Assembly: GCA_002189035.1 (NCBI GenBank)
Contig: CM007989.1
Location: 7,855,501 to 7,919,500, forward strand
Direction: 5' to 3'
Length of the DNA: 64,000 nucleotides
Source: Utricularia gibba
Lineage: Eukaryota > Streptophyta > Magnoliopsida > Lamiales > Lentibulariaceae
Shown in pieces: positions 1,346 through 50,800 of the stretch. Both the position numbers and the translations under genes were made by a program. Numbering within the stretch: the first letter of the stretch is position 1; the number at the start of each line of letters is the position of its first letter. Below the pieces are notes generated by a model, which did not search any database, was not told where the DNA came from, and saw only the letters and a program-made list of their open reading frames with translations.

Positions 1346-3284
1346 ATGGGGCAAGAGGCTGTGGTGGTGGCGGGTGTCAACATGAGGTTGAAGCCTTCCA
1401 GGCTGGGGGCTCCTCCCCCGACTTCCTTGGCGCCGGGGTTCAGGTTCCATCCCACTGATGAGGAGTTGGTCAGATATTATTTGAGGAGGAAAGCTTGTGG
1501 TAAACCCTTTAGGTTCCAAGCTGTCGCTGAGATTGATGTGTACAAATCTGAGCCTTGGGAGCTTGCCGGTATCTTGATTCATTCATGGATCTCATTCGAA
1601 TGAATTTTTTTTTCTGCAAGATGTGCTTTTGCTTTTTCATGGGTATTGTGGTGTGGTTGGTATGCACGGAAAGCTGTGGCCTTTTCTTGCTTCTTCATGT
1701 GTTTATGTGTTCTGGTCTTAACCCGACTTAGGTTCACATTCTTGTATTCAAGATTGGATTTTTACACCCGAAGAGTTTGAGTAGAATTTTGGGTTCAAAT
1801 TTGAATTGATCTGAATAATTATGTTGACGATGACGAAACCATTGTTGGATAAGATTCGAGAAAGAAGCAAAAAACTAAAATTTGGGGACAGATCTGGAGT
1901 AGCAGAACAATGGCCCTTAATTGGTTGTATTAGTTGACTGATGGGGCGCAGGGGGTCATGAGAGCTTTCACTTTGATTTATGTGATGCTCCTCTATGTCT
2001 GGCTTACCCTTGTGTTTTAAAGCTCCTATTTTTATTTGGTATGCTCTATAACGGTCCCTTCTCTATGTTAATTTGTTCTGTTCTTCTGTGTTTGTCTTTT
2101 GGTTAGACTATTCATCTCTGAAGAGCAGAGATCTGGAGTGGTATTTTTTCAGTCCTGTGGATAGGAAGTATGGTAATGGGTCTCGTCTGAACCGGGCCAC
2201 CGGAAAAGGATACTGGAAAGCAACCGGTAAAGATCGAGCTGTGCGCCATAGGAACCAGAACATAGGGATGAAAAAAACTCTTGTTTTCCACAGTGGACGA
2301 GCACCAGATGGCAAGCGAACCAATTGGGTTATGCATGAGTACAGACTTTGTGATTCTGAGTTGGAAAGGGCAGGAGTAGCACAGGTGAGACTGCAGTTTC
2401 ATCCGCAGTTCAGTGTTTCTTTCTGCTGTTTATAATGAAACCTGAAGAACGTTTTCCCTTTTCTTTTGCGGAAAAGGATGCGTTCGTCCTATGTCGAATT
2501 TTCCAAAAAAGTGGTCTTGGGCCTCCCAATGGAGACAGGTATGCCCCTTTTGTGGAAGAAGAGTGGGATGATGAGGCTCTCATGGTTCCCAATGGTGATG
2601 CTGAGGATGACATGGCTAATGGGGATGATGCCCTGCCCGACGCCCCTGGTGTCGAGCTGGTACGGTTCCCTCTTTCTCTGCAGAGCTTCGTCTAGACTTG
2701 TCTGATATTCATTGAAGCAGAACCAGTTCGGAGAGACCTTTAATCTTTGTTTCTGTAATGTTCACTCGTGTACTGTAGCAGGAGGATCAAGCTCTCACCA
2801 TGGCCCCTCCGGCGATACCCCAACCGCTTCCTCTAATGTGCAAGAGGGAGAAATCAGAAGATTGCCCGGAGTCCAGCTTTGGTCAAACCAAAAGACCAAG
2901 GCAGGAGGATCCAAGCTCCGGCCAAACGAATGGCTCCGAGGACTCAACAACGACGTGCCAGGAGCACGCCGGAAGGATGATGACGACAACCAACAAGTTT
3001 TCCCCCACCCTGCTGGAATTCCCCCTCCTCCAACCAGTAGAAGCCAAAGAGAACCCTCCAACCAGCCACCATTTCACCTTCGACTCTTCCAATCTGGAGA
3101 AGTCCGTCCCCCCGGGTACCTGAAATTCATCAGCAACCTCGAGAACGAGATCCTGAATGTGTCGATGGAGCGGGAGACCCTCAAGATCGAAGTGATGAGA
3201 GCCCAGGCAATGATCAACGTCCTTCAGTCTCGGATCGACTTGCTAGTGAAGGAGAACGACGACCTGCGACGGTGTGGCTCTTAG
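1346..3284 (+). CDS. NAC-domain transcription factor with C-terminal coiled coil (frame broken once)
   Basis: Four exons: 1346-1568, 2107-2384, 2477-2659 and 2782-3284. Exons 1 to 3 encode a complete NAC DNA-binding domain (about residues 30-190) with the hallmarks [60 protein letters not shown] and [10 protein letters not shown]. The exon 1/2 junction gives ELADYSSLK, a standard intron position in this family. An acidic segment follows (FVEEEWDDE), then a basic KRPRQED stretch. The C-terminus has a leucine-rich coiled coil ([15 protein letters not shown] onward). This layout resembles the ANAC082/ANAC103 group, which acts in stress signalling in the nucleus; that assignment is inference. As written, the frame ends at TGA 3121-3123 (341 aa). 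The coiled coil lies one frame away, and one extra base in the C/G run at 3108-3116 would give about 395 aa. Confidence 0.88.
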
Positions 3285-3663
3285 GGAAGGTAGCTACCTA
3301 GCTAGGGCTGTTTACCCCTGTTAGATGAGTTGGGTTTTGTGAGTTTGGTAGAAATCCGCAGGAGTTGGTGCCGAGTTCTGCTAAACCCCCCTCTTCCTTT
3401 CATTCAAAACATCAACAAACCAATGGATGCTGCCTTCCTTCTGTCAAAGTAGGGATCTTTTGCCCATTACATGAATCAGAAAACAACCATAACCACAACC
3501 CATCATCAACACCTCAAAATAGTTTTGTATTTGTTTAGCAATGAAACAGTATAGGTAACAGAGACAGTGAGCAGGCTTCCCTCCCTCTAAAGGAGGGATC
3601 TTGAACACAGATCAAGAACCAGCCACAGAAGGAAACGCAAAAAGATGGAGCAATCCACTACAT
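3285..3663. other. tail-to-tail 3' UTRs of NAC and H2B genes
   Basis: This 379-base gap separates the NAC stop codon from the H2B stop codon on the op­posite strand. It must hold both 3' UTRs. No further reading frame or RNA gene is visible. Confidence 0.6.
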
Positions 3664-4086
3664 TTAAGAACTGGTAAACTTGGTAACAGCCTTGGTTCCT
3701 TCTGAAACGGCGTGCTTTGCCAACTCTTGAATCTCCACTACAAGCCTCACTGCAGTTTGAATCTCCCGCGAGGTGATTGTAGGCTTCTTGTTGTATCGCG
3801 CCAGTCGCGATGCTTCTTGCGCCAGTTTCTCGAAAATGTCGTTGATGAAGCTGTTCATGATCCCCATCGCCTTGCTCGATATGCCGATATCAGGGTGCAC
3901 CTGTTTCAGCACCTTGAAGATGTAGATCTTGTAGGTTTCCGTAGCTTTCTTCCCGCGCTTCTTCTTCTTATCAGCCGCCGCTGCGGAAACGTCCTTCGGA
4001 AGCTTCTTTCCTGCCGCCTTCACCTTCTTCTCCGCCGGAGCCTTTTCCACCGCCGCGGCGGGCTTCTTCTCTGCCTTGGGCGCCAT
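3664..4086 (-). CDS. HTB: histone H2B, variant C-terminal segment
   Basis: An intronless 140-residue core histone that pairs with H2A in the nucleosome. The N-terminal tail (about residues 1-50) is Lys/Ala/Pro-rich, as in plant H2B. The histone fold is well conserved ([46 protein letters not shown]) and the end is standard ([15 protein letters not shown]), including the Lys of AVTKFTSS used for monoubiquitination in known H2Bs. One segment is abnormal: the near-invariant LPG between RLV and ELAKH is replaced by VEIQ, a net gain of one residue. The change keeps the frame and is not the simple indel seen elsewhere in the window. A TATA box and two CCAAT boxes lie just upstream. Histone identity is certain; whether the variant is functional is not. 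Confidence 0.95.
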
Positions 4087-4148
4087 TCAACGATATGAAA
4101 CCTCGGGTGGCAATGCGATCGCGATCGGCAATCGAGGGAAAGGTTTCT

Positions 4149-4190
4149 TATTTATAGGGAACAACAGTGAATTTTGATTGGCTGAATTGG
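4149..4190 (-). promoter_or_regulatory. H2B promoter: TATA box and two CCAAT boxes
   Basis: Read on the minus strand, TATAAATA occupies 4156-4149, about 65 bases before the start codon. Reverse CCAAT boxes lie at 4181-4177 and 4190-4186. This compact arrangement is usual for plant core histone genes. I did not find an exact histone octamer element. Confidence 0.65.
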
Positions 4191-4954
4191 GTTCACATCG
4201 GATCGTCACAGCTGTTGAGATGGACGGTCCAGATCAAAGGGCTCGACCTCCATAGCGGGCCCCAGAATCTAATTTGGTATAATTTAATATCATTTTTTAT
4301 TCCGGAAAATCATGCAAAATTGTTTTACTTTTTCAAATTGAGTAAATAACAATAACAAATGAATACAAGTAAATACAATAAATTAGTTTTATTTAAAATA
4401 TAAGTATTTCATTCTGAAATTGCATATAATCGTAAAAATAATAAATAAGATTGTATTTATAAGTAAATAATTATTTTTCAATTTTTTTAAAAAATTATTC
4501 GAATCAAACGATAACAAAACAAAAATATATATGTTAAAAATAATAAAAACAATTAATATTTATCAAGACTCATCATATATAATTTTATTCTTATGTGTAA
4601 ATGTAAATCTCAATAATTGATTCGTTTGTGTAATTTTAAAGAATAATTAAACACATTTAATACGATTATATAAACAAAATACTATTTTTTCATTCGTTTT
4701 GGTTTCAAATAACTTCTCCTTTATTCTCATCCATTTGATGGAAGCCTCTAGTCTTCTGGGAAATGGTTTCAATGAAGCAAATTATTTTTCTAGTATATTG
4801 TGCAGGGAGACGACGCCTGGTCTCTTCTTATGAAGCTATACTACGAAGGAATTGGATTAGGCGGGGAAGTTAGCGACCGGGGAGTTGACAAGTTGGCTGC
4901 CTGAGATGATCTCCGATGGCGGGCTGGCTTCCTATCTGCTTCCAATGTCGGCAG
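4191..4954. other. AT-rich spacer between H2B promoter and RING gene 3' end
   Basis: Very AT-rich from about 4270 to 4760, then mixed sequence that likely holds the RING gene 3' UTR. No gene, repeat family or RNA is recognised. Confidence 0.5.
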
Positions 4955-7953
4955 CTACAAGACTGTGTAAGCTCTGATGACCTCAACAATGGGCGCCCGG
5001 CACAGGGGGCATTTGCCTCCTCCTCGCATCAGCTCATTCGCGCATCGAGAGCAGGCGCACATGTGCCCGCACCTGTCAAGCCAACAGGGATCATCGTCAT
5101 CATCTGTTGATGGAGGGAACTCGCGTGGCTGTGGTTGCTTACCTGTACATGAGGGCATCGATGTGGCTGTCACAGCACACGCAGCATGTGCCCTTTCTGG
5201 CAATGCACCATTTGGGGTCATCATCTGGTGTTTTGATGCAGTAATAAGAGATCAGCATCTTGGTTTTTCATGGGAACTTGAGGTGGGAGATTGGGTGTAC
5301 CGTGTTCGTTGAAGGAGCGGTGGAGAGCTGCAGAAACTTCTTGTCTGACTGATCTCTGGAGCTCCATTTGCATATCCATGCACGCTTCTAGCATCTTCTG
5401 CATGTGGTTCATTCCTTGATGGAGCTTTAACACGTCTGCCCGGAGATCGTTGATCATCTCCCACTCCTGGAAAGAAGAACGCACAAGCACCTGGTTTCAT
5501 ATCCTTGCTGCAGTAGTTACAAACTGTTCATGGTTTTTTAACTCACAAGTTCACAATTATTCATGCTGTGGCGAGACCAGGAAGGATGGTGCATCTCCCG
5601 GTGCCAAACCGGTTGTATTGGCGGGGGTGGAGGAGTTCGAGATGCCGCCGGTGTTGGGCTATCAACTGCATCAAGATGTTCCTGGCTTTGCATGAGACTC
5701 GACTGGTCTGAAACTGCCTCAGGCGACTGAGCATCATCAAAATGCAAAGGGGGTCTGCTTTGCCTTTCCACATATGACTGAATTAGCTGATCTAAGCTTT
5801 CACGAAAGCCGCTACGCAGAAGATTTGAGACTCGCCTCCTGAAGGAGACCATCACCATCACTTAAGTAACACAGATGAATGAAAAAGGAGTAAAATGGGA
5901 ATCCCACCTGTTCAGTAGTTCCCTTAGTTCCATGCTGTACACATTATCATCATCTGGGGGGTGGAAACGGGTAATCCCTTGAGATGGAAGACTGTGCACC
6001 ATTGTAGGAGTATCTGGAGAAATGTCTAGGTGATTTATTTCATATGACGTCTCAGAGCCTTGAGGTGCAGAAACGTGGCCTTCATTTTGAGATGCAAAGT
6101 CCTCAAATTGTCTGCTGGATACCGCAGAATGACTTCTATCTTCATGGATAGATACATGATCACCATGTGAATATTCTGGGCTCGATCCTTCAGACTCAGT
6201 TACCTGCACCTGCAATTCATCTCTCTCATGAAAAGGGTGTTGATTTTGACTAGAACTGTGGCCTTCTGGATTCCCACTGATTCCAGAGGCCTCTTGAGCT
6301 TCTTGATTCTCAGATCTATTTGCCAGGTTACTTCTAGAGCTACTGTTGTTATCATTTGAGATTTCCCCACGAGTAATAACTTGGCCTCGTACGATTCTTT
6401 CTAATCTGAAACGGAATCCTTCCCTGGAAACAAGTGATTCATTTAGGATGATGAGAAGCAGTCAAGAATGTGATGATTCCTAAACACAGAGCAAAAAAGA
6501 CATACCTCAGGCCAGAAACTGCATGTCTCTGTCTCAGTTGGCTTAGCTCACCAGCCGCAGCAGAAGGTGGTCTCTCTTCTTCAACCGGACTTTCATTTCT
6601 TAAGAATCTGCCTCTAAGCAGTGACTGAAAATCAATGTATACAACATCATGTTCCTGAACTTTTTCATGGAAGTCAGCTACTACACTGCATATACCTGAG
6701 CTATAGAAAAGATTATATTGATGAAAAAAGAAATCTTTTTTGTTCACTAGAAAGGACAAAGAATCTACAGGACTTAAGTTATGTACCTGAATGCGATTAC
6801 GATGAGCAAAATCTGTAACAGGACGTTGTTCCTGCAGATTTTGTATTTCTTGTTGCCTTTCTGCTTCTACTCTGACAAGCATGCTAAGGAGAGCTTGTCT
6901 ACCCCGCAATCTATGCAGGTCCCTTCCAGCATTCTCTGGCTGTGCATCTTCATTACTGGGAAGAGAAACTTCTCTAGAAAGACTATCCTGATATCTAGCA
7001 CCATTTTCTTGATCTCCCCTTTGTCCACCATGCAAACCTCTTGGTTGGCTACTCATTTGCATCCATTCTCTCACAATTCTTACCCTTTCACGCTCAGTCT
7101 CGCCAAGCAAATCTGCTCTAGAACTGTCCAAACTGCCGTTCCTGACAGTTGATGAAGCATCACTTGCACTACTCCCTGTCCATCTTCGAAGAATATGTCT
7201 TACTCTTTCCCGGTCAGTTTCACCAAGATCTGGAGATGTTTCCCGACTGGAATTCTCCTGCTCCCTGTTGCCAACCTGTGGACCTGATTGATCCGGGGGC
7301 CATGCTGAATACTCATTCTCACTCCCACTAGCACCCAGAGAAGTGCTGTGAGCGTCATTCTCCCTACTCTCTGACATACTTGTAGATGAACTTGCATTTG
7401 ATTCAACACTGTTCTGATGCCTTAATCTCCATTGCATTCTCTCACATGCACGGTTAAGTTCATGTTCATCTTCCAACTCCCTCCAACTCTGCAAAATTGA
7501 AGAGGCGCGAGAGCTCAGCCTCTCAACATTCCCCTGACGCCTAGAGGTAGGAGACTGTGATTCTTGCAAAAATGAAGAATCAAGCATGGATACAGTTTGC
7601 AAGCCTGCAAGTGCCATCAACTCCGACTCACGGCTCCTCCTCTCCCTCGTTGTGATCATCTCTTGCGCCTGGCGAGCAGCCCACCGCCCCAAAATCCTTG
7701 ATTGTTGCCGCCTCGCAGCAGAAGATTCAGCCAGGTCATCTCCCTGGAGATCAGATCTCCTTCTCCTTCTGAGAATCTGTTCTCCATCATCCTCCTCGTC
7801 TTCAGTAGTAGATGTTCTCGGTGAGTTGCAGGAACCAAAAGACACACATTCATCATAATGCCCGCAGATTAAATCCTCCAAACCCCTTTCAGATTCAGAG
7901 CGAGAGTCCCTATTCATGCTCTCGGATTTCTGGTTTTGCTGAATACCCGCCAT
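4955..7953 (-). CDS. large disordered protein with C-terminal RING finger (E3 ligase type)
   Basis: Seven exons on the minus strand: 7953-6787, 6624-6506, 6423-5908, 5838-5547, 5466-5301, 5224-5143 and 5072-4955. All junctions are GT-AG and the phases close on an 819-residue protein. The first 700 residues are Ser/Arg/Glu/Gln-rich and look disordered, with repeated units of the type [14 protein letters not shown] (around [14 protein letters not shown] and [14 protein letters not shown]). A helical stretch follows ([15 protein letters not shown]). The C-terminus holds a C3HC4-type [19 protein letters not shown], then [14 protein letters not shown] and [16 protein letters not shown], split by an intron after MYR. 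The family is found across plants and is annotated as RING/U-box proteins of unknown target. E3 ubiquitin ligase activity is inferred from the RING. Confidence 0.88.
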
Positions 7954-20299: not shown

Positions 20300-22246
20300 A
20301 TGGGACGGAAGGACGGCGGAAGAAGCGGCGGGTGGTTATCCTCCGTTAAAAAGGTTTTCAAGATCTCTCCCGTTCGCCCCTCGCCGGAAAAGAAGGTCCC
20401 CTTCTCTCTATTTCTTATTGCATGCCCTCACGGCGAGGTGCCCCCGCCTCTGTGATTCGTAGGGATGATGAGTGCAGCCCAGTGTGGTTAATTAGTTTCG
20501 CGTAGATTGGGTTAAGCATAGGGGGGTGATTAGTACCCACTAAGAACACAGTTATGCTTCTTCATTAAGGTGTATCCATCCCACGATGATGAGATCTATC
20601 AGAATCTAGACCTGAAACGCGAGTAGGATGAAGAACTACGGGTATGAGGGAGGCCCTTTAGACAGTACTTTTTATGGTCCCCTGTTAATAATAACACTGG
20701 GAGCAACACACAAGGGCCTTGTGTCACATTGCTTTCCATCCAACCATGCATTCACGTTGGGGCATCACGCGCCCCCATCGCTTTTCACTTACGGCTTCGA
20801 TGTCATCATGTTATTTGTCTGGGATTTCACTTTGGCTGCATCTTCCACCTTTTTCACTCATGATCTGACGTTGCTGCAGGAGGCCTGGCACTACGGGGCT
20901 CCGGAGGTGCTCACCCTTGAGCGTTTTCCCACCGGCAGCTCCACGGACGATGTGAATGGGGAGAGCTTCCGGTCATCGCCGGAAGCGGTGAGGTTTCCGG
21001 GCAGGGGCGGAGATCCAGGGAGGAGAAGGCGGCGACGCTAATCCAATCCTACTACAGAGGATATCTGGTAAACAAGAACAAACACATCATACTTCTCCAT
21101 ACTCCTTACAGGAGCTCTGACATCCCTTCCTTAGGCACGACGTGCCTTGCGGGCGCTGAAGGGGCTGGTGCGGCTCCAGGCGCTGGTTCGAGGCCACAAC
21201 GTGCGAAAGCAAGCTCGGATGACGATGCGGTGTATGCAGGCGCTGGTTCGGGTCCAGACCCGGGTTCAGGCACGCAGGCTCCAGTCCGTCCGGGGCAACC
21301 TCCCTCACCAGAAACCCGAACACGACGAAGAGACCATGGAACACGAAGCCAGCCCCACGCCAATGGAACTCTCCCAGAGAAAGTTGCTGGAATCCGACAT
21401 GGAGCGTGAAAGAGCTCTGGCATATTACCAGGTAACTGAAGTCAACGGTCCCTATCACAGAGTTTTAACGGTAGTAACTACTTTATTACCGTCCCTTCTT
21501 CTTTTCTTGCAAAATGGGAGTATGAGGTGGGGCCCACATAAAAAGATGTAGTTCATGTGTATCCTCTTTTGATAAAATAAAGCTAAAAAGTGCAGGACGT
21601 GGACCACTGTCTGAATACAGCAGTGGATTTTTCTGGTAATACCTTCCAAAAAAAAATATTATCTTTTTTTTGTTTTTTTGTGGAAATTAATATGATAAAC
21701 CAACAGGTGAGACAGAAGCTGCTGAAGTCTGGGATTGACTGCGGCCGGCTCTCCGGTGAGGAGGAAGAAGACGAGGAGGAGGAAGGACGGGGATGGAGTT
21801 GGCTGGAGAGGTGGATGGCATCGCAGCCACACCATCACCATCACGCGCCGCCGCTTACTTCCGACACCTCCGCGGAAATGGACGCAGTGGGCTGCGGCAA
21901 GCCCACGGCGGCTCATCTCAGACCGAGTCCGGCGAGGGCGCAGCGCCGGCCGAGAGTAGAGGATCGGATCCCTAGCTACATGGCCGCGACCCAGTCGGCG
22001 AAAGCGAAAGCGAAAAGCCATAACCCGGTAAAGCAAAGGAGCCCGCCGAGAGTCCAATGGGTATCTTCGACTAGAACAGGCGGGGAACGGGTCCGGTTCG
22101 GGTACGACTCTTCGAGCTCAGGCGGCGGAGCAACGGCGGGGCGGGGGAGCCCTTGCTTGAAGGAGAAAGTGAAGTGGATGTTGAGCCCGGAATGCAAGGC
22201 CGAAGACAGGATCCCGGCGCCGGGATGGAGAAACAGTAACAACTAA
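20300..22246 (+). CDS. IQD: IQ67-domain calmodulin-binding protein (frame broken once)
   Basis: Four exons: 20300-20395, 20880-21067, 21135-21431 and 21707-22246. The N-terminus ([21 protein letters not shown]) is typical of IQD proteins. The IQ67 domain spans the exon 2/3 junction: [13 protein letters not shown] then [20 protein letters not shown] and [18 protein letters not shown], with the conserved phase-0 intron inside the first IQ motif. The C-terminus has the [14 protein letters not shown] motif (DUF4005). IQDs bind calmodulin and link calcium signals to microtubules or the plasma membrane. As written, exon 2 runs into TAA 21039-21041. One extra base in the G-rich run at 21004-21010 restores [14 protein letters not shown] and a product of about 373 residues. 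A spliced solution would need a 20-35-base intron, too short for plants. Confidence 0.88.
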
Positions 22247-23116: not shown

Positions 23117-26100
23117 ATGGGTACTCTGCAAATCATCCCCTCACCAATCGGTGTTTCTAAATCTGGAAAAAGTTCAGCATTCAGTTGTTTCAGGGGTGTT
23201 GGGCAAGTGGGTTTTTCTTCTGTTTTGAGGAGAAAAAGTAGTGGAAAATTGTTGTTTGTTCGAAGAACAGGGTCATTATCAGAGGGTCAGAAGATGGGGA
23301 GGTTCTGAGGAGTAATGATGATCAGGAACCGGATGAGATTCTGAAAGCTGGTTCTGTTGCTGGGGTTGATTCGGTTTATCGTTCTGGTAGAGCTTGTCAC
23401 AACTGTTTCTTTCGTTTTTTTTTCCTTTTTGTTGATGTTCATTTATTATTTGAGTTTACCAGATCTGTTTGTGTGATCCATGGCCGTTACTTCAGTGTTA
23501 CTCAATGAAAGATCCAAACTTTTTACATCAAAGATGAACATATTCTATGCCTAAATCTAAAGAAACCCCAACTTTTGCATATTTGAATTTGTGTTGTGTT
23601 GTTTTTTTATTGGGTACGCCGTTGTATGCATTTGATCTTTTTTTTTGTGTTGTCTAATTAACATTTTTGTTAATAGTGTGTTCATATGATGTTCTTATTC
23701 AGCTTCTATTTTCTCTTGTTTCCCCCCTTACGATCCTATTAGAAGTGCATCCAACTCCAGTTACTGGCGCCGAACAACCGCCTGAACTTCAAAAGGATAT
23801 CATCAATGGGGTAGAGAAATCTGTCAACATTGTAGACGATGACGAGAGTTCAAAGAGAACAATGTTCAATGTTGTTTTTGTATCTGCGGAAGCATCTCCA
23901 TATTCCAAGACTGGAGGCTTGGGAGATGTTTGTGGGTCATTACCTATTGCCTTGGCAGCACGTGGCCACCGAGTAATGGTTGTTTCTCCAAGATACATAA
24001 ATGGTAATCCTTCAGACAAAAGATATGCCAATGGGGTTCAAAGGGAACAACGTGCTAGGTTCTACTGTTTTGGTGCTGAGCAAGAGGTCACGTTCTTCCA
24101 CGAATATAGGCTGGAGTTGATTGGGTAAAAAGATGTCTTCTTCGTAATGTTCTCATAGGAAGTTGTTTTCATCAGGGGTCTATCTTTTGTAAGTGTGGAA
24201 TTTGGTTTTATATTTGCAGGTATTTGTTGATCATCCTTGTTACCACCGTCCTGGAAACCCCTACGGTGATAGCTATGGTGCATTTGGTGATAATCAGGTC
24301 AATTTTCATGTTTTAATTTTTTGTATATACACATACATACATATTATAAACGAGTGTGTATATCGTATTTGAACATTCTCATTTCGGCATTGCAGTTCAG
24401 GTTTACTTTACTTTGTTACTCTGCGTGTGAAGCTCCATTATTGCTGCCCTTGGGAGGATATACCTATGGACAGAAGTGTATGTTTCTTGCAAATGACTGG
24501 CACGCTGGCCTAGTCCCAGTGTATGTTACTTATGTATTGCACTTGTTGTGTATGTGGACAATGTGTTCTTCTTGACACCCGAAGTCTCTGTTCTGGAAGT
24601 TTTCTAGTTCATTATACACCCATTATCTCTTGCAAAATTTCAGACTACTAGCAGCAAAATACCGGTCTCATGGTGTTTACATGGATGCTCGGAGTCTCAT
24701 CGTAATACATAATATAGCTCACCAGGTTAAATTATTTCTCCTCCTATCTTAGTTCAATATATATACACAGCTGCATATGATATGCTGCTATTCTTACACC
24801 TTTTGGAAAGGAGCAATTGAAGCAATTTTAGATATGATCTGTCGTTGGGTATTTTTGATAGATCCTGTCAGTTTGGAAATGGTTGAACCCATTTTAACAT
24901 TTGTGTCTTATCATCTGAAGGAGTTGAACCTGCAGCGACTTACATGAACCTGGGCTTACCACCAGGGTGGTACAAAGCACTTGAATGGGTGTTTCCCACA
25001 TGGGCTAGAACGCATGCTCTTGACCCAGGGGAAGCTGTGAATGTTCTAAAAGCTGCAATTGTCACTGCAGATAGGATTGTGGCAGTTAGCCAGGTTGCTT
25101 CTTCTTGTCCTCTTTTTCCCTGCATTTGGTTTACATGGGATTTCCTAAAGACTCTTTTTTCTGCTTGTGCTCTCTTTGTTCAGGGTTATTCATGGGAAAT
25201 AACTACCCCTGAGGGTGGATATGGTTTGCATGACCTGATCAAATGTCGAAATATAGTTGTAACAGGTATGCTTATTTTCTCACAATGCAAGATGCGTTTA
25301 ACTTTAACTGGTATTTAGCAAGGGATGCTTATACATGTTCAGGGATCACTAATGGGATTGATATCAATGAATGGGATCCATCTACTGATGAGCATATTGC
25401 ATCGAAATACTCTCTAGAAAACCTCGATGGAAAGGTGATGAACAGCTTCTTCTAAGTTATTTATAAAGAACACCTTTGCTTCAACGGTCTTTTAGAAGAA
25501 CTCATCATGTCTCGGACTGCAGAAAGAATGCAAGATTTCCCTTCAGAAGGAACTTGGACTGCCGGTTAGGCCAGATTGCCCCTTGGTGAGAGCATCCCCT
25601 GTGGTTATTATTTTGGCATAGCAGTCCCCTGCTTTTAATTCTCTCATTGTTTGTTTCTCAGATTGGATTTATTGGGAGATTAGACTACCAGAAGGGTGTC
25701 GATATTCTTCTTTCTTCTGTTCCAGATATCATGCAAGATGATGTTCAGTTGGTATGCAAGCTGTTTTCTAGATCATCCTTAGAAAAACTCCATGAGAAGT
25801 GGAACAATCTGAAGAATGATGCATTTTCCCTCAGGTGATGCTGGGATCAGGAGAGCAGCAATACCAAGACTGGATGCGGCATCTCGAGTCTGAGTATAGA
25901 GACAAGTATCGCGGTTGGGTTGGATTCAACATCCCAGTTTCTCACCGGATTACAGCAGGGTGAGCCAAAAGTTCTCAAATTTACCTCTCTTTTCCATGAA
26001 GATGCGTATACCAATACTGGGAAATTGCAGCTGCGATATTATTGTCATGCCTTCGAGATTCGAGCCGTGTGGTCTAATCCAGCTCTATGCAATGAGATAC

Positions 26101-27168: not shown

Positions 27169-27319
27169 ATCTTTGCGCTTGGGGCAATGACGCAGCTAGT
27201 GAGGTTCTAACCGAGGCGCGTCTTTTGCTGGTTGAAAACTATTTCCAAACCCCCTCTTAGGCTTGGGTTATCCTCAAGCCTACGAGAATTTTTGGAAGGG
27301 TAGACTACGGTCATTCCCT
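27169..27319 (+). ncRNA. U4: U4 spliceosomal snRNA
   Basis: The RNA begins ATCTTTGCGCTTGGGG and continues through GAGGTTCTAACCGAGGCGCG, the U6-pairing and 5' stem-loop region of plant U4. It then runs through TTGAAAACTATTTCC to a 3' hairpin and an Sm site (AATTTTTGG near 27290), with a final stem built around GGGTAGACTACGGTC. The length of about 151 nt fits plant U4. A 3'-end element of the CA-N-AGTNNAA type follows at about 27320-27334. U4 holds U6 inactive in the U4/U6.U5 tri-snRNP. The promoter upstream and the intact stems suggest a functional copy. The 3' end is approximate. Confidence 0.92.
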
Positions 27320-27864: not shown

Positions 27865-27934
27865 TGCGCATCCGGGGAATCGAACCCCGGTCAGTACCGT
27901 GGGAGGTACTATGATACCACTACACCAGATGCGC
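27865..27934 (-). tRNA. tRNA-Gly, probably CCC anticodon, one base short in the anticodon arm
   Basis: The acceptor arms GCGCATC and GATGCGC pair fully, with discriminator A at 27865. The D arm carries GTAGTGGTA (A box) and the T arm GGTTCGATTCC (B box), both intact. The anticodon arm reads AGTACCTCCCACGGTACT. Nuclear tRNA-Gly normally has GTACC, a 7-base loop and GGTAC; here only six loop bases (TCCCAC) remain. One more C in the CC at 27906-27905 would give loop CTCCCAC with anticodon CCC. Length is 70 instead of 71. This is the same one-base loss in a C run seen in several protein genes. Confidence 0.9.
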
Positions 27935-28197: not shown

Positions 28198-31006
28198 TCA
28201 GAGAGCAGACTCGATTTTGTCATGGAGCGTGACGACCAGGTCGTGGGCATCGTCCAGGAGCTTCCACACGTCAAGATGCCCCGCCATTGAGTTGCACTCC
28301 CTCAGGATCTCATCCATGCTGCTGTACTTCTCGATGATCAGCTTCCTCCTTTGCAGGACGGACGCCGCGATCGCATACAGCAGCAGGTCGTCCGTCGGCG
28401 GCGCCCGCTGCCGTATCTTCCTCCAGGCCTTCTTCCCTATCCCGGCCCTGATGGCAGCCTGGTCAGCCCACATCACCTCCCACAGGCACAGGGTCTGCTC
28501 GAAGGTGAGCTCCCGCCGGAAGAGGACCACCACCATCCGGTACACAAAGAAGCAGTCATTGGCTTGGAGTTTCTCCAGGTGCTTGTAGAGGCGCAGGTCC
28601 TTGTACTTGATGATCTTGGAGACGATCATCAGCTGCCTTCTGATGCCGACCTCGTCGAGCCTGAAGTTGTAGCGAGCCTTTTTCATGAACCCAACGAAGC
28701 ACCAGAAGGCTAAGCTGTCATCGGTCATCACAGCGATTATGGGAGACAGGAGGTCGCTCATCCCCTGGCAGTAGCCGATCTCGGGGTCATACCGAGCATA
28801 TGCTTCCAGAATGACAACCAGTCGAGCAGCATGGAAGATCCTGGCGGGATCAAGGTGTTCACAGTCATTCAATCCAGCAATCTCAGACGCGTGCTTCGCC
28901 TCGATGTCTGACACCGTGTTCTGGACTGGGAGTATGGCATCCATTCGGCATTGCACCGGATGGCATCGAGTCGGATGATACGCTGCCATGTAGAAAAATC
29001 TTCTAGACCTTGGGATGCTGGCTTGATTTCCGTCGGCAGGGATGATGATGAGAGCTCATTTAGGGATGGCTCGAGATCAACCGAGGAATCAGTGTCCAAG
29101 GAATCTGAGTCACAGCCATCTATCAATGAACTGGTGGGTTGGTTAGCAACCTCGTCATTACTGACCCCAAACTCACTGGAGAGAGATTCCCTGGTGCTAA
29201 CAGTATCACCGGAATCTGGACAACCCACAACAGAAGAGGAACTCCCATCAACAAACTTGGTACTTTCACCACCTCCATTCATCTTGGCCACTTTACTGCT
29301 AAGCTTAAGAAGCTGGCTACACGGCCTCCATAATCTCTCATATTCTTTCCTGCGTGCATTTTTATCATAATGAGTATGAGGAACGCATGAGACGCCAGTC
29401 AATTAAACATATAAAGAATAAAGGAATGAAAAAATACGTTTTTAAATAAAACAAACAAAACATCCTTTGCCTCGGTTATCCTGTTTCTCGACTGGTGTGT
29501 GATCCAGGAAGGGGTAAAGGAAGTGACCTGAAGAACAAAAAGTGATAAGGGTACGTAGTGCACCTTTTCTGATTAAAAATAGCATCCCTTTCTTCACTGG
29601 TGCTTGTAAGGTCGTATCTACAAATAAGTGAAAAAATAAAGTTAGATCCAGAGCATGGAAGTTACTCGGAACAGATACTCAAAATGAAAGGTAAATGCAC
29701 CAAGAATACGGTAAATGAGTGACAAGTATTGAAAAGTTCCGATTTTGTGTCTTTCATTCACTATCTATGGTCGACTGAACATGCCAGTTAACTAAACGCA
29801 ACCACCATCTAAATAAATATGCGTATCCCGGAAATACTAAGTTGCATGACTGGGGCGCGGCGCAAGTAGCAATGAATCAACTTACACGCCAAGGAGGAAT
29901 GGCCAAACCTCTGCTCTTATACTCGGATCAACACTCTGCACACACCAGCACAAAATCGTACACATCATGATCATCACATCCAAACCCAAATAACAGCATT
30001 TTCACCGAGAGGAGTCATATAAGATATGAGTAACAGGAAAATCACAAGTTCAAGCCATGTGAAACAACTCACCCCACTACGCACAATCTTCAAAAATTCA
30101 ATTCCATCGTCAATGAGTTTGCCTTCTGGTGTAAAAGAACTTTTCCATTGACTCGAAGATAAGAGGCACTTCCTTTTTCTTCGTGACCATCGCGATTTGT
30201 GCTGAACTCTGGAACGGGAAACTATTAGTAACAGATTCAATGAAGGCCGCACTTCTTCAAACCAAAGCAAAACTGAGCAGACGGCATTTTAAAAGTAAAA
30301 TTAGCAATCAACAGGAAATCCTTAAATGAAGAGATAAACTATCTCATTAGCTTATGCGCTAAGAATGTAGGGAAATGAATGATGGGCTTTTCTTTTTGAG
30401 AAATGAAAAAACGGACTAAGCAGATGATTTAATATGACAGTTACAAAAAACAGATCGAGATAGATGTACAGCAGCTGCCTCACAAAAAGAGGAACCAAAG
30501 AACACCAAAATGAACCATGACTTGATCGAAGTAAGACTAGGAAAAAATTCCTGCTTTGTCCCACTTCTAAAAAAGTTTCCCCTCAGGGAAGATTTACTCA
30601 AGCCTAAAAAATACCCTACTTCGTCCTTTCTAAAAAGGTGAACTAGGCGACCTGGAAACGGTAAGAAACCTAAAATATCAGAGAAACAGATCTAGATGCA
30701 CAAACAGCGGATTTCGAACGGAATACGCTGAAGTGTTAGAGAGAGATCTGAAGTAAAATTGGGAGTGGGAGGAAACCAATAATAGAATAAGAAGTAAATC
30801 GAACGATATTTAGAGATAACAGAGACTCACCGGCGGGAAGAAGAAGAAGATGATGATGATGATGAAGAAGCCGGTGAGGAGTTTGTGGATGCTACTAATT
30901 TAATCCACGACAGAGGTGGAGGAGACGACGGCTTATGCGAGGAAGATGAAATTGGCGAAGGTTTTGGCGACGACGACGAAGTATGGCTTCGTCTTAGAGC
31001 TCTCAT
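28198..31006 (-). CDS. GYP7-like TBC-domain RabGAP (frame broken once)
   Basis: Five exons: 31006-30831, 30208-30073, 29935-29886, 29617-29564 and 29349-28198. The N-terminus (MRALRRSHTSSSS) is followed by a long Ser-rich stretch, partly from a GAT/GAA microsatellite. Next come WSRRKRKCLLSSSQWKSSFTPEGKL and SVDPSIRAEVWPFLLGVYDL, which open the TBC domain in this family. A Ser/Asp-rich insert separates these from the catalytic half. That half has the arginine finger IIRLDAIR and glutamine finger GYCQGMSDLL, then FWCFVGFMKKARYNFRLDE. Such proteins speed GTP hydrolysis by Rab GTPases in membrane traffic. The frame is broken near 28923-28924, between EWMPYSQS and QNTVSDIEAKH; one more C restores it and gives about 522 residues. 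Confidence 0.9.
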
Positions 31007-38736: not shown

Positions 38737-40151
38737 TTACAATAAGATCTGTTGAAGTTCCTGATCAGCAGGTAATGGTGCTCTCCTCTCCATTGCATTG
38801 CTTGTGCTGGTTTCCTCACCAGCATCGCAGTTAACAGTTAAGGACGCCCTTTTCGCCTTAAGCCACACACTGGCCTCACTTGATACTCCTCTGCACTTCT
38901 TAAATTTGATGTTCATCAGGTTAGGACAGCCATGGGCGAATGCCTGCATCCCAGAGTCTGTCACACGACAGCACTTGATGCATAGTTTCTTCAAGGCTAT
39001 GCATTTCTCTGCAATGCATGAGATCTCTTTATCACCAATGGTGTCACTCCCACAAAGGGCTAATCTTTCCAGTTTTTGGCAGTTTGAGGAGATTGCCATC
39101 ATGCTGATGTGGGTGGGATTCACCCCAACAAGCACTAACTCAGTTAGATTCAGGCTGTTATTTGCAATTGCAATCAGTCCTTCGTCGTCTATTCTGTTGG
39201 TTCTCCATCCATCAAGGTGAAGCTTCCTCAAAAGCTTGCAGTTCTCAGCAATGGCTGAAAGCCCTTTGTTGGAGCAATCGGGAGACTTGACCAAATGGAG
39301 AGTGTCCAGATAGGGGCATCTGGAAATGGCTGTTAGCCCGGAATCACTCACATGAAGCTTCTCCAAATGGATCTCTGTTAAACATGGCTTGCTTCTAGTG
39401 ATCTCTTGCAGTAATCCATCCCAGTCACCTGAGCACTTGAGAATCTTCATGGTTCTCAAATTCTTAGACTCGATTAGTAAAGGCGAGAAGAATTGCCCAT
39501 TGTAAAGCTCCTTCAGGGTGATGGATTTCAGTGACGCAGCGGCTTTTCCTGGTGCAACCAGTTCAGCTTTGGAGCCATCATTGAAACCTTTCAAGCGCTT
39601 AACGTAGAGATCCTCGAGGGCGCAGTTTTTGAGAAGCGCATTGATGCCTTTGGCCCCGAAATTGCATGATCCGCAAGCAAATTTGAGCAGTGATTTGCAA
39701 TTCTGAGAAAGAATCGACATACCATGGTCAGTGATTTCATGGCATCCGCGGATTTTGAGGGAGGTGAGGTTGGGGCAGCGCTCTGAGATGAAAATCAAGC
39801 CATCATCGTCTATGCTGATGGATCTACGGTTGCAGCGGAGGACGAGTTTGGTGACGGAATCGAAACGTGTGAAGATCGCCGGAAGAAGGGGGTGACGTCG
39901 GTGGAAGCGTGGAGCGCGAGTCGGCCTCGTCTTTCGCCTTCGACGGAGCGCCAGCGGCGACAGATCAAGGAACAATTGTTCCGGTCGCTGGGGCTGAGGA
40001 ACTGGAAGATTAAACCTAGACAATCATCGGGAATCCCAGATATGTAGTCCTTATTCAAAATCGAGATCGAGAAATCATTAGAGCGCGGCTGCTCGGACCC
40101 ATAGCCTACGTGGGACAAACCACCATATGGAGAAGAGGTGGTTTGGCCCAT
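38737..40151 (-). CDS. F-box/LRR protein of the SKIP2/VFB type (frame broken once)
   Basis: An intronless gene. The start at 40151 gives MGQTTSS, as in SKIP2/VFB proteins. The F-box lies near residues 37-75 (YISGIPDDCLGLIFQFL, RNNCSLICRRW). Leucine-rich repeats of the cysteine-containing type follow (FDSVTKLVLRC, LTSLKIRGCHEITDHGM, CGSCNFGAKGINALL, LERLALCGSDTIGDKEI, LKKLCIKCCRVTDSGM). These proteins act as substrate receptors in SCF ubiquitin ligases; VFBs influence auxin responses and lateral roots in Arabidopsis. The F-box and LRR parts lie in different frames. The shift maps to the run of five G at 39888-39892 (C on the coding strand), between DVTP and LLPAIFTRFDS. One extra base gives about 471 residues. 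Confidence 0.88.
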
Positions 40152-40400: not shown

Positions 40401-42213
40401 ATGGCAACGGCTCTCTCTTCTTCCATGTTGGCGCTCTTCCCCCGTTGCCAATACCCTCCTCTCCAATCCACTCAATTCCGACCTACCCATAAGCGATTCT
40501 TTCGAATACCCATATCTTTATCGATCACATCGCCGGCATGTTCTTGCATTGGCACCATGGTGGAAGACGGAAGCCAGAGCGATGAAGCTATGAGCATCGA
40601 CAATCTTAAAAGATTCATCGACCTGAATTTGGGTCACTGGACAGGATCTTTCCATGTAATGCAGAGTCTTTGAGTTATTCCTTGTCTTTTTATTTAACCG
40701 ATGATCTCTGTTGTGCCTGCAGCAATTCGATTGTACCGGTAATTTGCTGCACAAAATAAGTACAAAGCTTGCTTCCAGCTCCTACGGTGAAGATGAGCTG
40801 ATCAGTTTGATTCAGTCGTAAGCGTTATTGTTACCTTAGCTTTGCAGAAGAATTTGGTTCTTGTACTCAATCTCTAACTCGGAGCATCTCTCCTTCTGAA
40901 GTGTAGTTTATACATTAAACAGCCACTGTTAAGTTCACTGGATTCCAACTCTGAGCCGGAATGGTTTGAGTATAAAATCAAAGAGAGCAACATGTTCACG
41001 GTGGACAAGTATCAGCAGGTTAGATCTTTTTGAGTGGATTCACAAGTGCTGTATTCATCATCATTGTTCGGCTCATCATGGGTGGTACTTAGTTTTCAGA
41101 TTGGCTTTTTCCCTAAAGAAAAGGCGTTTTCTTTGCGATATCAGACGGCTGGAATGTTGGAAACGGTTATCAGACAAGGTGTCTTGGGTGAAGATGACAC
41201 TGGAGAAGTGTCTCCCAGGTCTGCCCTTCTTTCCACAAGAGCAGTTTTATGGGAATAGCTAGAAAACGCATTTTTATACTCTCATGAACAAACGGATAAT
41301 TGTCTGTAACTTCTATTGAATAAATGTTGGTTGATGCATCATCATATGTTCACAAAGGTGCCAGTTTCTCAAATCTTTTCCTTGTCTTTGATGTGTCCAA
41401 GCTAGCTGTTTACCGAAGGTTTTTCTCTTTGTTATCTCTCAAAGAAATCTGAAGCTCCCGTCTCGAAGGCCTGCGGTTGTATGTGAAACATGCCTCTATT
41501 CTCTGGAGCAAGATTCAAGACTGAGAGCTTTCCATATCCTGGACCCGCAAGGGATTCTAGAAATGCTTCTGGTGTTCCTGGAAGAAAGAGGAAGCAGGGT
41601 GGCCGAGCATCCTGCTTTTGGCACTTCCAAGGCATTTTCCCTTATCAATACCACCACCTCTCTAGTCTCCACCTTCAGTTCAGTCTTCAAATACCAACAG
41701 ATGATTCAATGTTCAGGATTCATGTAGACTGGCACCACATTTAGGGACATGGGTGGGACACTCCTTAACCAAACGGAGTGGCGTCTATGGCGCCACCATT
41801 GTCGAAGCAGACACAGTTACCACTCTTGAGATCAATGAGGACGGTCAGCTGGTTCAGGTATCCCCACTCAGCCTCGCTCAGCTTTGGCTCCATGTTTTCT
41901 GATAGCCTCGTGTGTCCAGGATATGAAGTCATCTACATCAGGAGACAAGGATGTGACGACGTCCGTGCAGTGGACAGGCTCGACCTCCGGCAACTTGGCG
42001 ACGTTCGACGGTGGCTTCCGGCTGACGCTGCTGCCAGGGGGTGTATACATGGGATGCCCAACAGACGTGGCGAAGAGTGTGCAGGAGTTCAAGTCGTTCC
42101 ATTTGGAGCTGTGCTGGGCGGAGTCCACAAACCGAAGACAGAGGCTGCTGCGCACATACGACGTGGAAGGTCTCCATGTCTCTTCCACTTACTTCCTGGA
42201 AACCAGACTGTAA
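40401..42213 (+). CDS. DUF3598-like plastid protein (frame broken once)
   Basis: Seven exons: 40401-40655, 40723-40817, 40907-41018, 41100-41218, 41445-41598, 41679-41857 and 41920-42213. The N-terminus (MATALSSSMLALFPRCQYPP) looks like a chloroplast transit peptide. Conserved blocks include LNLGHWTGSFHQFD near the start, IGFFPKEKAFSLRYQ, LPSRRPAVVCETCLYSLEQD, GVYGATIVEADTVTTLEIN and FDGGFRLTLLPGGVYMGCP. The ending RLLRTYDVEGLHVSSTYF is also conserved. The two GxW-type halves resemble a lipocalin-like fold. I recognise the family as DUF3598 of plants and cyanobacteria, with no function I can assign. In exon 6 the frame breaks at CC 41735-41736 between RIHVDWH and HLGTWVGHS; one more C restores it, giving about 402 residues. 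Confidence 0.78.
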
Positions 42214-45670: not shown

Positions 45671-45696
45671 CCCCCTCCCCCCCCCCCCCCCCCCCA
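45671..45696 (-). promoter_or_regulatory. poly-G tract in the Dof 5' leader
   Basis: On the coding strand this reads 20 G, one A and 5 G, ending 13 bases before the start codon. Such a tract could fold into G-quadruplexes in DNA or RNA and affect translation or transcription. The run length is uncertain because the assembly appears to drop bases in G/C runs. Confidence 0.5.
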
Positions 45697-46483: not shown

Positions 46484-48361
46484 TTATATTTTTACTATTT
46501 TTTTACTTGAGGGCCCCACAACGAAGACTTTACGGTGTTGCCTTTCCCATCGGATCCTGGCTGAAAAGAGAGTACCTTTACTGGTCATGGATGACGTGGA
46601 GGAATGGAACGAGGGTATTTTTGGAAACAAGACTTCTATTTTTAACAGTACTTGGAGACTCATCTCGGCAAGTATTTTTTGTACTTGTGAATGCTTGCTT
46701 TGACTCTTCTGGGGAGAGAAGCAAATCCCATGAGCCCAAGATTTCGATTTCTCCACAGGCTTCCTTTTTTTCCCTTGTTGGCAGCCGTGTCTTTCATGTA
46801 TTTGACAACAGCCTGATCACATCATAGCCCCTGTTCCCCCTTTAGTGTCTTGCATTCCATGAACTGTCACAAACAGTGCTGACAGGTTTGAGTTACATTA
46901 CCTGAGCTCCCTTCTCCACTACTTGCATTGGCGGGATTTCCAGAGGGTTCCCTTCGAGATTCAAAACAGCAAGGTTAGAGAGCATGCCAAACGAATCTGG
47001 AAGACCTGTTATCTGGTTGCTGTTACAGATCAACTCCTCCAACGTCTCTATGTTGCCAATGGATCTTGGTAGAGCTCTCAATTCCGCGAAGTTGTTGCTT
47101 ATGTCCAACTTTATGAGTTTTGGGGTGGCACACAGGCTCTCCGGGATGGCTGCAAGCTGATTGAAACTGAGATCAAGGTGTCTTAGGCTCAGCATAGATG
47201 CTGTGGTTGTGGGAAGCTGTCGGATGTTGTTGTAACGGACTGTGAGGATCTCCAGTGACTGGATTCTTCCGATGGCCTCAGGTAGCGCTTTGAGACAGTT
47301 ATAGCCTGCATGAAGTTCCTTAAGTGAAGTACAATGACCAATGGTGTAAGGGATTTCCTCTATGTCGTTTGTGGCAACGTTTAGTATCTGGAGACTTGCG
47401 AGAGATCCCAGAGTTTCAGGCAGCACTATCAGTGCATTGGAGCTGAGATCAAGCTTACGGAGGCGAACCAGCTTACTGATGGTGGGAGGCAATGTGATGA
47501 GGTTATTCTCTCCGAGATCAAGGTGAAGTAAGCTGCGCAGGGTGGAGATTGATTCGGGAAGTTCATGGATACGATTTCCATGGAGATTCAGTGTCTGTAA
47601 TGAGAAGAGCTCTCCAATGGCGTTTGGTAGTGTAACAAGCCTGTTTTCTGATAGGTCTAAGTTGATCAAGCGTGAGAGTTTTCCGATGGAATCAGGGAGC
47701 CAATCTATCTGATATGATAGTTTATGTTTGAGAATCAGCTCCCGAGCTCCCTTCCTGGCTGATAGTTCAACACAGTGAGCTAAGCTCATCAAATCAAGTC
47801 TTCCTCCATCTGCATCTGCAACAAGCGAGCAAGCAGGCATTCATTGTTTTGAGCTTAACATTACTCACCAAATGCTCACAACTCACCGCAACTATCAGCT
47901 TGCTGGACATCAGCATCAATCTGAGAAGATGTTTCAGGATTTCTCAAGTGCCTGTCCTCAGCTTTCTTCAGGCGCTCCTCCGAGTCATCCGTGGAAGAAA
48001 CTGAAATCTCCGTGCAGGAAACACTGGAATGCATTGACTCTGAATGCTGAGACTGCACAATTTGTGAAGCTCTCTGAATCAAAACGCCTATTCGTGAGTG
48101 CAGGTCTTCAAGATCCAACAGTTCCTGAGCTTCCCTTTTGCGTTCACTGCTCTGGAAACTGATCATGTTGCGCCTCATCTCTTGCAAAATGATGGACAAG
48201 TCATCTTTTCCACTTGTCTGGTTCTCTAATCCCTCTAGTTTCAACCGAGCTTCTTCATCAACCTTATTGATTACACCTCTCGCTACATTTACTTCCTCAA
48301 CGTCGGGTCGAGCCGGCAACGATCGGTAAACGTTCATAATTTCTTCTACGGCGTCATCCAT
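46484..48361 (-). CDS. PIRL: plant intracellular Ras-group LRR protein (PIRL), last exon frame-broken
   Basis: Exons 48361-47887 and 47815-46902 are clear; a last exon begins at 46812. The N-terminal 160 residues form a helical, acidic region (MDDAVEEIMNVYRSLPARPD). Then come GGRLDLMSLAHCVELSARKGARELILK and about ten 23-residue leucine-rich repeats (LPDSIGKLSRLINLDLSEN onward) of the Shoc2/Sur-8 kind. The family-specific ending ISNNFAELRALPRSIGN and GNPLEIPPMQVVEKGAQ follows. The last exon continues AVVKYMKD and, one frame away, PVEKSKSWAHGICFS, the usual PIRL tail. One more base in the A/G run at about 46765-46774 joins them. The final C-terminus and stop are therefore uncertain. PIRLs act in gametophyte development in Arabidopsis; the molecular role is unknown. 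Confidence 0.87.
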
Positions 48362-49025
48362 TGTAATCGCCAACCTTTATACTGCAATAGAAAAAGCTCA
48401 AGACGCCATTTTGATGCAAGCAGAGTAGAGAGCATCACATTGGTTCCCTTCCCTTACTTTCCAAAATGTAGCAAACCATTTAAGGGGAAGAAGAAGATAA
48501 ACAGTTGTAAAAGCTCCCCCATTTGCATACGCAGACAGGAATCAATCTTCTTTCTGAGGCTGATATCATGGAATTCCCACCAGGGCAAGAAATGATCAAA
48601 GCTCAACTACACCTTACCTCGAAAGTAAGAAAGCGATAAATACGGCCATGTTCGTGACGACGCCGCACTTTCGGCATCAGTTCACGGTAAGGTTGTCTGG
48701 AGCGAACGCTACGGCTACGTTCAACCTCCAGCGTGTGCCTGCCAAAAAAAAAAAAAAAAAATTGTCTTTTGGCTTTTGGCAGAGTTGAGCTGCCTTGGCC
48801 GCCGATCTTGCGCTCGGAAGTCAGATCGCAATCCACGATTCTAACAAAGGTCCGTCCTTGATGGTTGCGCGAGGCGGAGATGCTCTATAGCTATGGCCGT
48901 CCAACCCCAGATCGCGAAACCGTGTTCTTTGGTACGGCGAGGCTGAGTTGCAATTTTTCCATAGAATAGGGTAATGAATGAAGGGATAAATCAAAAGAAT
49001 CCTTGCGAAGCACAAATGAATTGAA
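48362..49025. promoter_or_regulatory. divergent promoter region of PIRL and PP7 genes
   Basis: The two start codons are 664 bases apart, pointing away from each other. The stretch contains a run of about 19 A near 48745-48764 and otherwise mixed sequence. No further gene is seen. Confidence 0.5.
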
Positions 49026-50800
49026 ATGACTAGTCTTTCTCCGGCCCCGGCTGTGGAGCCGCCGCCGCCGTCCGAGGCGGATTCACCATCCGAACCTCCC
49101 CCCTCCACTATCTCCGATTCGAATCCTCATCCGCTACCCCACACAGAGCATCCGCACATCCCCATCACATGGCCCGACGACGGAATCCTTTCAGCTACTT
49201 GGGTTACGGAGGTCATGCTGGCCTTTGAATGGGCTTCAAGAAATTTGACGCCGGAGGAGTTCCCATCTGTTCTTCCAGTTAGCGTGTTGGATAAACTGGT
49301 GCTTTCTGCATCTAAGATTTTGCATAAAGAACCCAATTGCGTACAAATTGATGAGAAATGCGGACTGGGTTTGGATTCGCGCGTTGTGGTGGTTGGAGAC
49401 GTGCACGGTCAGCTCCATGATGTATTGTTTCTACTCAGAGATGCCGGATTTCCCGCGGACGATCGATTTTTTGTTTTCAACGGGGATTATGTTGACAGAG
49501 GTGCCTGGGGACTAGAGGTGTTTCTCCTCTTGTTGGCCTGGAAGGTTTGTATTCTTTTCTTGAATAATCCATATGCCCTTTTTCTCGATCTTGAGCTTAT
49601 AATTTTTTATCTTGGTTGCTTATTCAAACTGCCAACGGTGACCAGCTAAGCTGCTTCACTTTGTGTTGCCTGATAATGAAAGTTTGATCATTTCCAGTTG
49701 AAGTTCAATTTGCTTCCATTCTCTATTCTAGGTTCTGATGCCTCAGAGGGTGTATATGCTTCGGGGAATCATGAGTCAAAGTACTGCACTTCTGTATATG
49801 GTTTTGAGAAGGAAGTGTTAGCAAAGTATGGAGAAAATGGAAAGCATGTTTACAGGAAATGTTTGGGATGTTTTGAGGGACTTCCCCTTGCTTGTATTAT
49901 AGCTGGAAATGTGTATACTGCTCATGGAGGACTCTTCCGTGGATCCACAATCATGCCTTCGAAAACGAAAAGGTCCAAGAAGAAGAACCGTAAGGTTATC
50001 TGCAATGGCAATTCAGAGACCTTAAAACTCGGTTCTTTAGAAGACTTAGCAAGGGCTAGAAGGTCTGTTCTTGACCCCCCTTGGGAAGGTACCAATTTGA
50101 TACCTGGAGATGTCTTGTGGTCAGATCCAACCATGAAGTCTGGTCTTTCCCCAAATTTGGAGAGGGGAATTGGTCTCTTATGGGGTCCTGATTGCACAGA
50201 AGAATTTCTGAAGAACTTCAGTTTAAAGGTGACCCCTACTGCATCTGCTCTTTGTATGGTAACTGTTGCAGATTGATGTTGTTCTTTTACATGCTCGTTA
50301 TGTTCTGCGCCTTTTCTTTTACTTCTGGTGCAGTTGATTATCAGGTCACATGAAGGCCCTGATGCACGGGATAAGCGATCTGAGCTGGGCGGTATGGGAA
50401 CAGGCTACACTATAGATCACATTGTGGAGTCTGGAAAGCTCATCACATTGTTCAGCGCTCCTGATTATCCACAGTTTCAGGTGATTTCTTTGTGTTTATG
50501 TGGCCACAAAACCTTCTCAAAGGTTGAGCAAGTTTGTTCTTTTACCAGGCATCAGAAGAGAGGTATAGAAACAAAGCAGCATATATTGTTTTAGAGCCCC
50601 CTGAATTCGATACACCCGAGTTTCACACCTTCGATGCCGTTGCTCCTCGACCGAAGGTACCATTCTTCAACCATAACACAAGAGCCTGCAACTAAATGTG
50701 GATATAGCAGTCACAAAGATGCCTGCATCCTTTGCAGGTAAATGCATACTACGATTATGAAGAAGTTGTTGATTCTGATGAAAACCTGGAGGGCTGGTAA
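49026..50800 (+). CDS. PP7: serine/threonine-protein phosphatase 7 (frame broken once)
   Basis: Five exons: 49026-49544, 49732-50228, 50334-50480, 50549-50656 and 50738-50800. A Pro-rich N-terminus precedes [14 protein letters not shown] and the PPP-family catalytic core. The metal-binding motifs GDVHGQLHD and GDYVDRG are intact. The third motif, [18 protein letters not shown], lies just after a frame break. Further core blocks are [51 protein letters not shown] and [10 protein letters not shown]. Plant PP7 acts in blue-light and heat responses and binds calmodulin. As written, exon 2 shifts out of frame at GGGG 49763-49766, between MLR and GNHE. One extra G gives about 444 residues with exact phase at both ends of exon 2. 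Confidence 0.92.

What the first reader, a model, noticed from the sequence alone, without database searches (positions are those of the whole stretch)
1346..49766. Eleven one-base losses of the same sign, mostly in G/C runs
When splice sites are chosen so that phases close, seven protein genes and the tRNA need exactly one extra base at a run of G or C: NAC 3108-3116, IQD 21004-21010, SS1 three times, tRNA 27905-27906, TBC 28923-28924, F-box 39888-39892, DUF3598-like 41735-41736 and PP7 49763-49766. PIRL needs one in an A/G run. None needs a base removed. Random gene decay would give both signs and other lesions. A shared deletion bias at homopolymers points to uncorrected sequencing or consensus error.
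Basis: partly seen in the sequence, partly recalled or inferred. Interest (0 to 1): 0.75.

Follow-up and report, generated by a model that had tools for sequence, protein, structure and literature searches.

The report
One-base gaps from assembly errors
Several plant genes in this stretch look broken because the assembled sequence has dropped single G or C letters, a known kind of long-read sequencing error that recurs elsewhere in this genome, so the genes are probably intact in the plant.

Summary
Of eleven claimed one-base losses, four are confirmed by comparison (NAC, SS1 at 24108, tRNA, TBC), four are likely (PP7, F-box, BFA1/"DUF3598", PIRL) and three could not be shown (IQD, two of three in SS1). 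All eight supported sites have the same sign. As a control elsewhere in the genome I placed 19 exon-internal frame switches in GRAS and KCS genes: 17 are -1, 2 are "+1 or -2". They sit on G/C runs far above chance (run of 6 or more at 6 of 19, 0.04 expected) and not on A/T runs. The pairs tested are not decaying. Both NAC homoeologs switch frame at the same C/G run, yet both sides evolve under purifying selection (dN/dS 0.144 and 0.144); a GRAS pair gives 0.21 and 0.19. Two KCS copies identical over 75 of 75 downstream codons differ by one C at the switch. Best reading: uncorrected single-base deletions at G/C runs in a long-read consensus, probably the Utricularia gibba PacBio/HGAP/Quiver assembly (organism inferred). 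An ordinary artefact of low interest, but gene-loss counts from this assembly need care.

The parts
3108..3116 (+). NAC gene: frame switch (-1) in C6-G3, shared with the homoeolog at C413:5.016 Mb
24106..24110 (+). starch synthase I exon: frame switch (-1) at GG
27865..27934 (-). tRNA gene one base short (at 27905-27906) against two other copies
28923..28924 (-). TBC/RabGAP gene: frame switch (-1) at GG (+ strand)
39888..39892 (-). F-box/LRR gene: frame switch (-1) at G5 (+ strand); likely
41735..41736 (+). BFA1 (DUF3598-like) gene: frame switch (-1) at CC; likely, weakly tested
46763..46774 (-). PIRL gene: frame switch (-1) in GGG-A7-GG (- strand); likely
49763..49766 (+). PP7 phosphatase exon: frame switch (-1) at G4; likely
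21004..21010 (+). IQD gene: claimed loss, not testable here
23242..23305 (+). SS1 N-terminal exon: possible further -1 switch in a variable region, not shown

Best explanation
The one-base losses are consensus errors of the assembly, not mutations of the plant. G and C runs were read one base short often enough that the consensus kept the short version. SHOWN: one sign, G/C-run preference, rise with run length, recurrence in unrelated genes elsewhere in the genome, and purifying selection on both sides of the switch in two gene pairs. INFERRED: that the reads themselves would show the longer runs, that no accurate short reads were used for correction, the sequencing platform and pipeline, and the species (Utricularia gibba, PacBio with HGAP/Quiver).
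For: (a) 17 of 19 exon-internal frame switches placed in GRAS and KCS genes are -1 and 2 are '+1 or -2'; 8 of 8 supported window sites are -1. (b) A G/C run of at least 4, 5 or 6 lies at 10, 7 and 6 of the 19 (expected 1.55, 0.24, 0.04); an A/T run of at least 4 at 1 of 19 (expected 2.2). (c) In 54 loci with 83,414 coding bases the share of G/C runs inferred to be short rises with length: 1/1313, 2/346, 3/58, 1/9, 1/1 for lengths 3 to 7; none was assigned to the 592 A/T runs of 4 or more (the assignment is mine, L032 has an A4 beside its C4, and L064 and one of the two losses that fit L066 were not assigned). (d) NAC homoeologs: dN/dS 0.144 upstream and 0.144 downstream, each in its own frame; GRAS L067/L068 0.21 and 0.19; KCS L029/L032 identical over 75 of 75 downstream codons but C5 against C4 at the switch. 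(e) Two other copies of the tRNA with the extra base. (f) Counts of G/C runs in the genome: 14,854 of length 6, 2,706 of 7, 214 of 8, ratios 0.18 and 0.08. (g) An HGAP plus Quiver consensus of a bacterium had 561 single-base homopolymer deletions seen with Illumina reads (PMC4888979, passage).
Against: No reads were seen. Four of the eight supported window sites are only GG or CC. The NAC and GRAS switches recur at the same place in related copies, which needs a context-driven error. G/C runs of 7 and 8 exist in the assembly and one C run of 19 in the window, so there is no hard cap, and no other plant genome served as a control for run spectra. G/C runs of 6 are commoner in the window than the genome mean (21 against about 9.5). 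Three of the 18 loci with switches (L037, L064, L077) have stop codons listed inside the match; I did not settle whether these lie only in the wrong frame. PP7 can be read without a lesion. The 54 loci were the top-scoring part of 126 matches, so the rate is not a random sample.
Confidence: 0.93

Rival explanations
1. Real gene decay: the genes carry true one-base deletions, from a deletion-biased mutation process in a shrinking genome.
For: One sign of lesion predominates; the likely species has many gene losses (PMC6041341, passages). Some GRAS/KCS matches carry stop codons inside the match.
Against: Both sides of the switch remain under purifying selection in the two pairs tested, at dS of about 0.3 to 0.8. 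A/T runs, which are not rarer than G/C runs in the same coding sequence, show no excess of switches.
Confidence: 0.04
2. Programmed -1 ribosomal frameshifting (or RNA editing) at C/G runs lets truly shifted genes make full proteins.
For: NAC homoeologs and several GRAS paralogs switch at the same run; the NAC pair and the GRAS pair L067/L068 keep both frames under selection. By eye the window NAC run fits an X-XXY-YYZ slip site (recalled motif).
Against: The tRNA lesion cannot work this way. The switches sit on many different runs, several of only 2 to 4 bases. By eye the NAC homoeolog fits the slip motif less well. A near-identical KCS copy has the longer run.
Confidence: 0.02
3. Wrong gene models: unrecognised introns or other splice sites explain the phase breaks.
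For: Fits the conserved SS1 exons beyond 24108 and the PIRL break at 47840-47876; possible for IQD and for PP7.
Against: For tRNA, TBC, SS1 24108 and NAC the switch lies inside continuous conserved sequence with no room for an intron.
Confidence: 0.01

Closest known systems
Residual homopolymer deletions in PacBio HGAP/Quiver consensus (e.g. PMC4888979)
   Different: Here inferred from gene frames and paralogs, not from reads; a marked G/C preference, with some sites only GG or CC.
Programmed -1 ribosomal frameshifting
   Same: Two conserved frames meet at a homopolymer in NAC and GRAS.
   Different: Switches lie in unrelated genes and contexts, and one lesion is in a tRNA.
Pseudogenes from deletion-biased decay
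   Same: Frame-breaking one-base deletions.
   Different: Purifying selection on both sides in the pairs tested, and nearly one lesion type only.

Membership tests
Consensus homopolymer deletion error | Indels almost all of one sign | tested here: met
   17 of 19 are -1, p = 0.0007; 8 of 8 supported window sites
Consensus homopolymer deletion error | Located at homopolymers, more with longer runs | tested here: met
   G/C runs only
Consensus homopolymer deletion error | Affected genes evolve as functional genes | tested here: met
   two pairs by dN/dS, a third by identity; the other loci were not tested
Consensus homopolymer deletion error | Accurate reads disagree with the assembly | not testable with these tools
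   no reads held
Programmed -1 frameshifting | Slip heptamer at the switch | tested here: inconclusive
   judged by eye only, motif recalled: fits the window NAC run, not the many runs of 2 to 4
Pseudogene decay | Relaxed selection after the lesion | tested here: not met
   two pairs
Utricularia gibba PacBio assembly | Size, contig number and contiguity | tested here: inconclusive
   G000: 100,091,633 bases, 516 contigs, contigs up to at least 8.5 Mb; PMC5793159 passages: genome 82 Mb, 581 contigs, N50 3.4 Mb, HGAP

The most novel reading that the evidence does not exclude
A conserved -1 frameshift at a C-run is really used to translate NAC and some GRAS regulators in this plant: both NAC homoeologs, and several GRAS paralogs at the GGPP column, switch frame at the same run while, in the pairs tested, both frames stay under selection.
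Probability: 0.02. Interest if true: 0.8.

Novelty: not a real feature. Interest (0 to 1): 0.2.

Why it matters
Nine frame-switch junctions fell in 83 kb of GRAS and KCS coding sequence, about one per 9 kb. If that rate held for all genes (my extrapolation from two families, not a random sample), thousands of gene models in this assembly would be split or truncated, and claims of gene loss or truncation drawn from it would need read-level checks. One published truncation in the likely species, DCL3, was checked by its authors with transcripts and 5' RACE (PMC8333044, passage), so it is not put in doubt here.

Tried and rejected
A hard cap on G/C run length was considered and rejected: the genome holds 2,706 runs of 7 and 214 of 8, and the window one C run of 19. 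Listing non-triplet gaps in homoeolog DNA alignments was of little use: many gaps look intronic or untranslated, and errors shared by both copies (NAC) do not show. The Rfam tRNA search scored and listed only 63 of 4,728 candidates, so it could not measure a lesion rate. Joining frames for Pfam gained only 0.7 bit for TBC and 0.3 for BFA1; TBC was then settled with paralogs, BFA1 was not. In one search the PP7 comparison was against a cut-down sequence and so was unfair; against the unbroken frame itself the Pfam scores are equal (44.0, 43.2 joined), and only the comparison with solved chains favours the joined reading, so PP7 was moved from confirmed to likely.

Rows dropped before the count of 19: junctions that look like introns; the N-terminal variable parts of L052 and L069; three junctions in two GRAS copies judged pseudogene-like (C416: -1; C244: -1 and '+1 or -2'); the intron-like gap in C4:1155k; and split copies listed that I did not fetch (for example GRAS C3:261k, C402:1216-1218k, C375:103-104k; KCS C244:2620k, C414:2341k). 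L076a was kept although its best interval is not at a G/C run.

Full report
WHAT WAS CLAIMED. Eleven one-base losses of the same sign, mostly in G/C runs, in seven or eight protein genes and a tRNA, read as uncorrected consensus error.

WHERE THE WINDOW LIES. The window is C1:7855501-7919500 of an unnamed plant genome of 100,091,633 bases in 516 contigs. It has homoeologous blocks on contig C413: 5.014-5.051 Mb for window 1-13 kb, and 0.785-0.906 Mb reversed for about 22-58 kb. Contiguity resembles the PacBio assembly of Utricularia gibba, described in a review as 581 contigs, N50 3.4 Mb, HGAP (which polishes with Quiver), 88-fold, genome 82 Mb (PMC5793159, passages). The species is an inference.

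SITE BY SITE. tRNA: two other copies have one more G at 27905 and differ by nothing or one base elsewhere. TBC: read in two frames and joined by one X, the window protein aligns to L009 over 92 columns at 66% and to L008 over 90 at 63% without a gap, and each paralog reads in one frame. SS1 at 24108: the joined protein aligns to starch synthase I (4hln_A) over residues 3-156 and is continuous through the switch, while the unbroken frame meets a stop. By my reading the later exons close with GT-AG introns, and the exon-wise matches to the same chain agree, so two of the three SS1 claims are not supported there. PP7: the joined reading scores 53.0 bits against 44.4 for the unbroken frame on the best solved chain, and its alignment starts 12 residues earlier; the Pfam scores are equal (44.0 unbroken; 43.2 joined), and a second possible acceptor lies upstream. 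F-box, BFA1 and PIRL show two overlapping frames that fit a -1 switch but have weaker tests. The PIRL site is 46763-46774; the break at 47840-47876 closes as an intron. IQD could not be tested.

NAC IN DETAIL. Window and homoeolog align with no gap at the run (CCCCCCGGG against GCCCCCGGG in the same columns), and both meet the same stop just after it. Upstream, 108 codons give dN/dS 0.144; downstream, in the other frame, 51 codons also give 0.144; read in the upstream frame, the downstream part shows 11 non-synonymous and no synonymous changes. Both frames are therefore under selection in their own parts. Either both copies share a context-driven consensus error or the switch is bridged in translation.

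CONTROL ELSEWHERE IN THE GENOME. I took two families that are mostly intronless (recalled; some copies here have introns): KCS (PF08392, 56 matches) and GRAS (PF03514, 70 matches). I read 24 and 30 loci whole, the best-scoring ones, plus small pieces around further junctions. Placing each switch without inserting a base gave 19 cases in 18 loci: 17 of -1 and 2 of '+1 or -2' (L066, L077; L066 fits two separate losses). G/C runs of at least 3, 4, 5 and 6 lie at 16, 10, 7 and 6 of 19, against 5.8, 1.55, 0.24 and 0.04 expected from 20,000 random coding intervals each; A/T runs of at least 3 and 4 at 5 and 1 of 19 against 7.1 and 2.2. The GRAS copies L067, L068 and L072 switch in the C run of the GGPP column, and L066 and L069 within the same dozen codons. 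Three of the 18 loci have stops listed inside the match (L037, L064, L077), not resolved.

RATE AND RUN LENGTH. In the 54 loci (83,414 coding bases) 9 of the junctions fall. G/C runs inferred to be short are 1 of 1313, 2 of 346, 3 of 58, 1 of 9 and 1 of 1 for lengths 3 to 7; none was assigned to the 592 A/T runs of 4 or more (Fisher p = 0.002 for runs of 4 or more). The inferred lengths rest on my placing of the switches. In the genome G/C runs of 6, 7 and 8 number 14,854, 2,706 and 214, ratios 0.18 and 0.08. In the 343 kb that I held, the ratios at the same steps are 0.11 and 0.13 for G/C (only 8 runs of 7) and 0.54 and 0.34 for A/T. There is no outside control genome for this spectrum.

NOT DECAY, IN THE PAIRS TESTED. 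GRAS L067 and L068 both switch at the same run, and dN/dS is 0.21 upstream (283 codons) and 0.19 downstream (236). KCS L029 and L032 are near-identical (dS 0.07 upstream, 75 of 75 codons identical downstream) and differ by one C at the switch.

LITERATURE. An HGAP/Quiver bacterial genome showed 561 single-base homopolymer deletions against Illumina reads (PMC4888979, passage). Searches of the held library for such errors in the Utricularia gibba assembly (listings, with passages of PMC8333044, PMC5793159 and PMC6041341) gave no statement of them; the main assembly paper is not held, so I cannot say that it is unreported.

VERDICT.

Noticed in passing
L002 at window 12565; L004 at window 28464: The homoeologs of the WSD-type acyltransferase and TBC genes carry one-base losses of their own against the window; the TBC homoeolog also falls into two frames.
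   Followed up: partly
   Followed up: partly
window 27169-27309 (+) and 52899-53207 (-): A U4 snRNA and a plant SRP RNA match Rfam above their cut-offs; the U4 region aligns to C413 at 92% over 156 bases without a gap.
   Followed up: no
G000 contigs C1, C505, C507, C409, C515: Contig lengths are exact multiples of 2,500 (8,500,000; 3,452,500; 642,500; 2,492,500; 267,500), while other contigs read are not; cause unknown.
   Followed up: no
G000 C413:4.947-4.998 Mb: Cluster of KCS matches, several with full-length open frames and some split or with stops.
   Followed up: no
window, one C run of 19 (place not looked up): A single 19-base C run stands alone beyond the otherwise short G/C runs of the window, where no other G/C run exceeds 6.
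   Followed up: no
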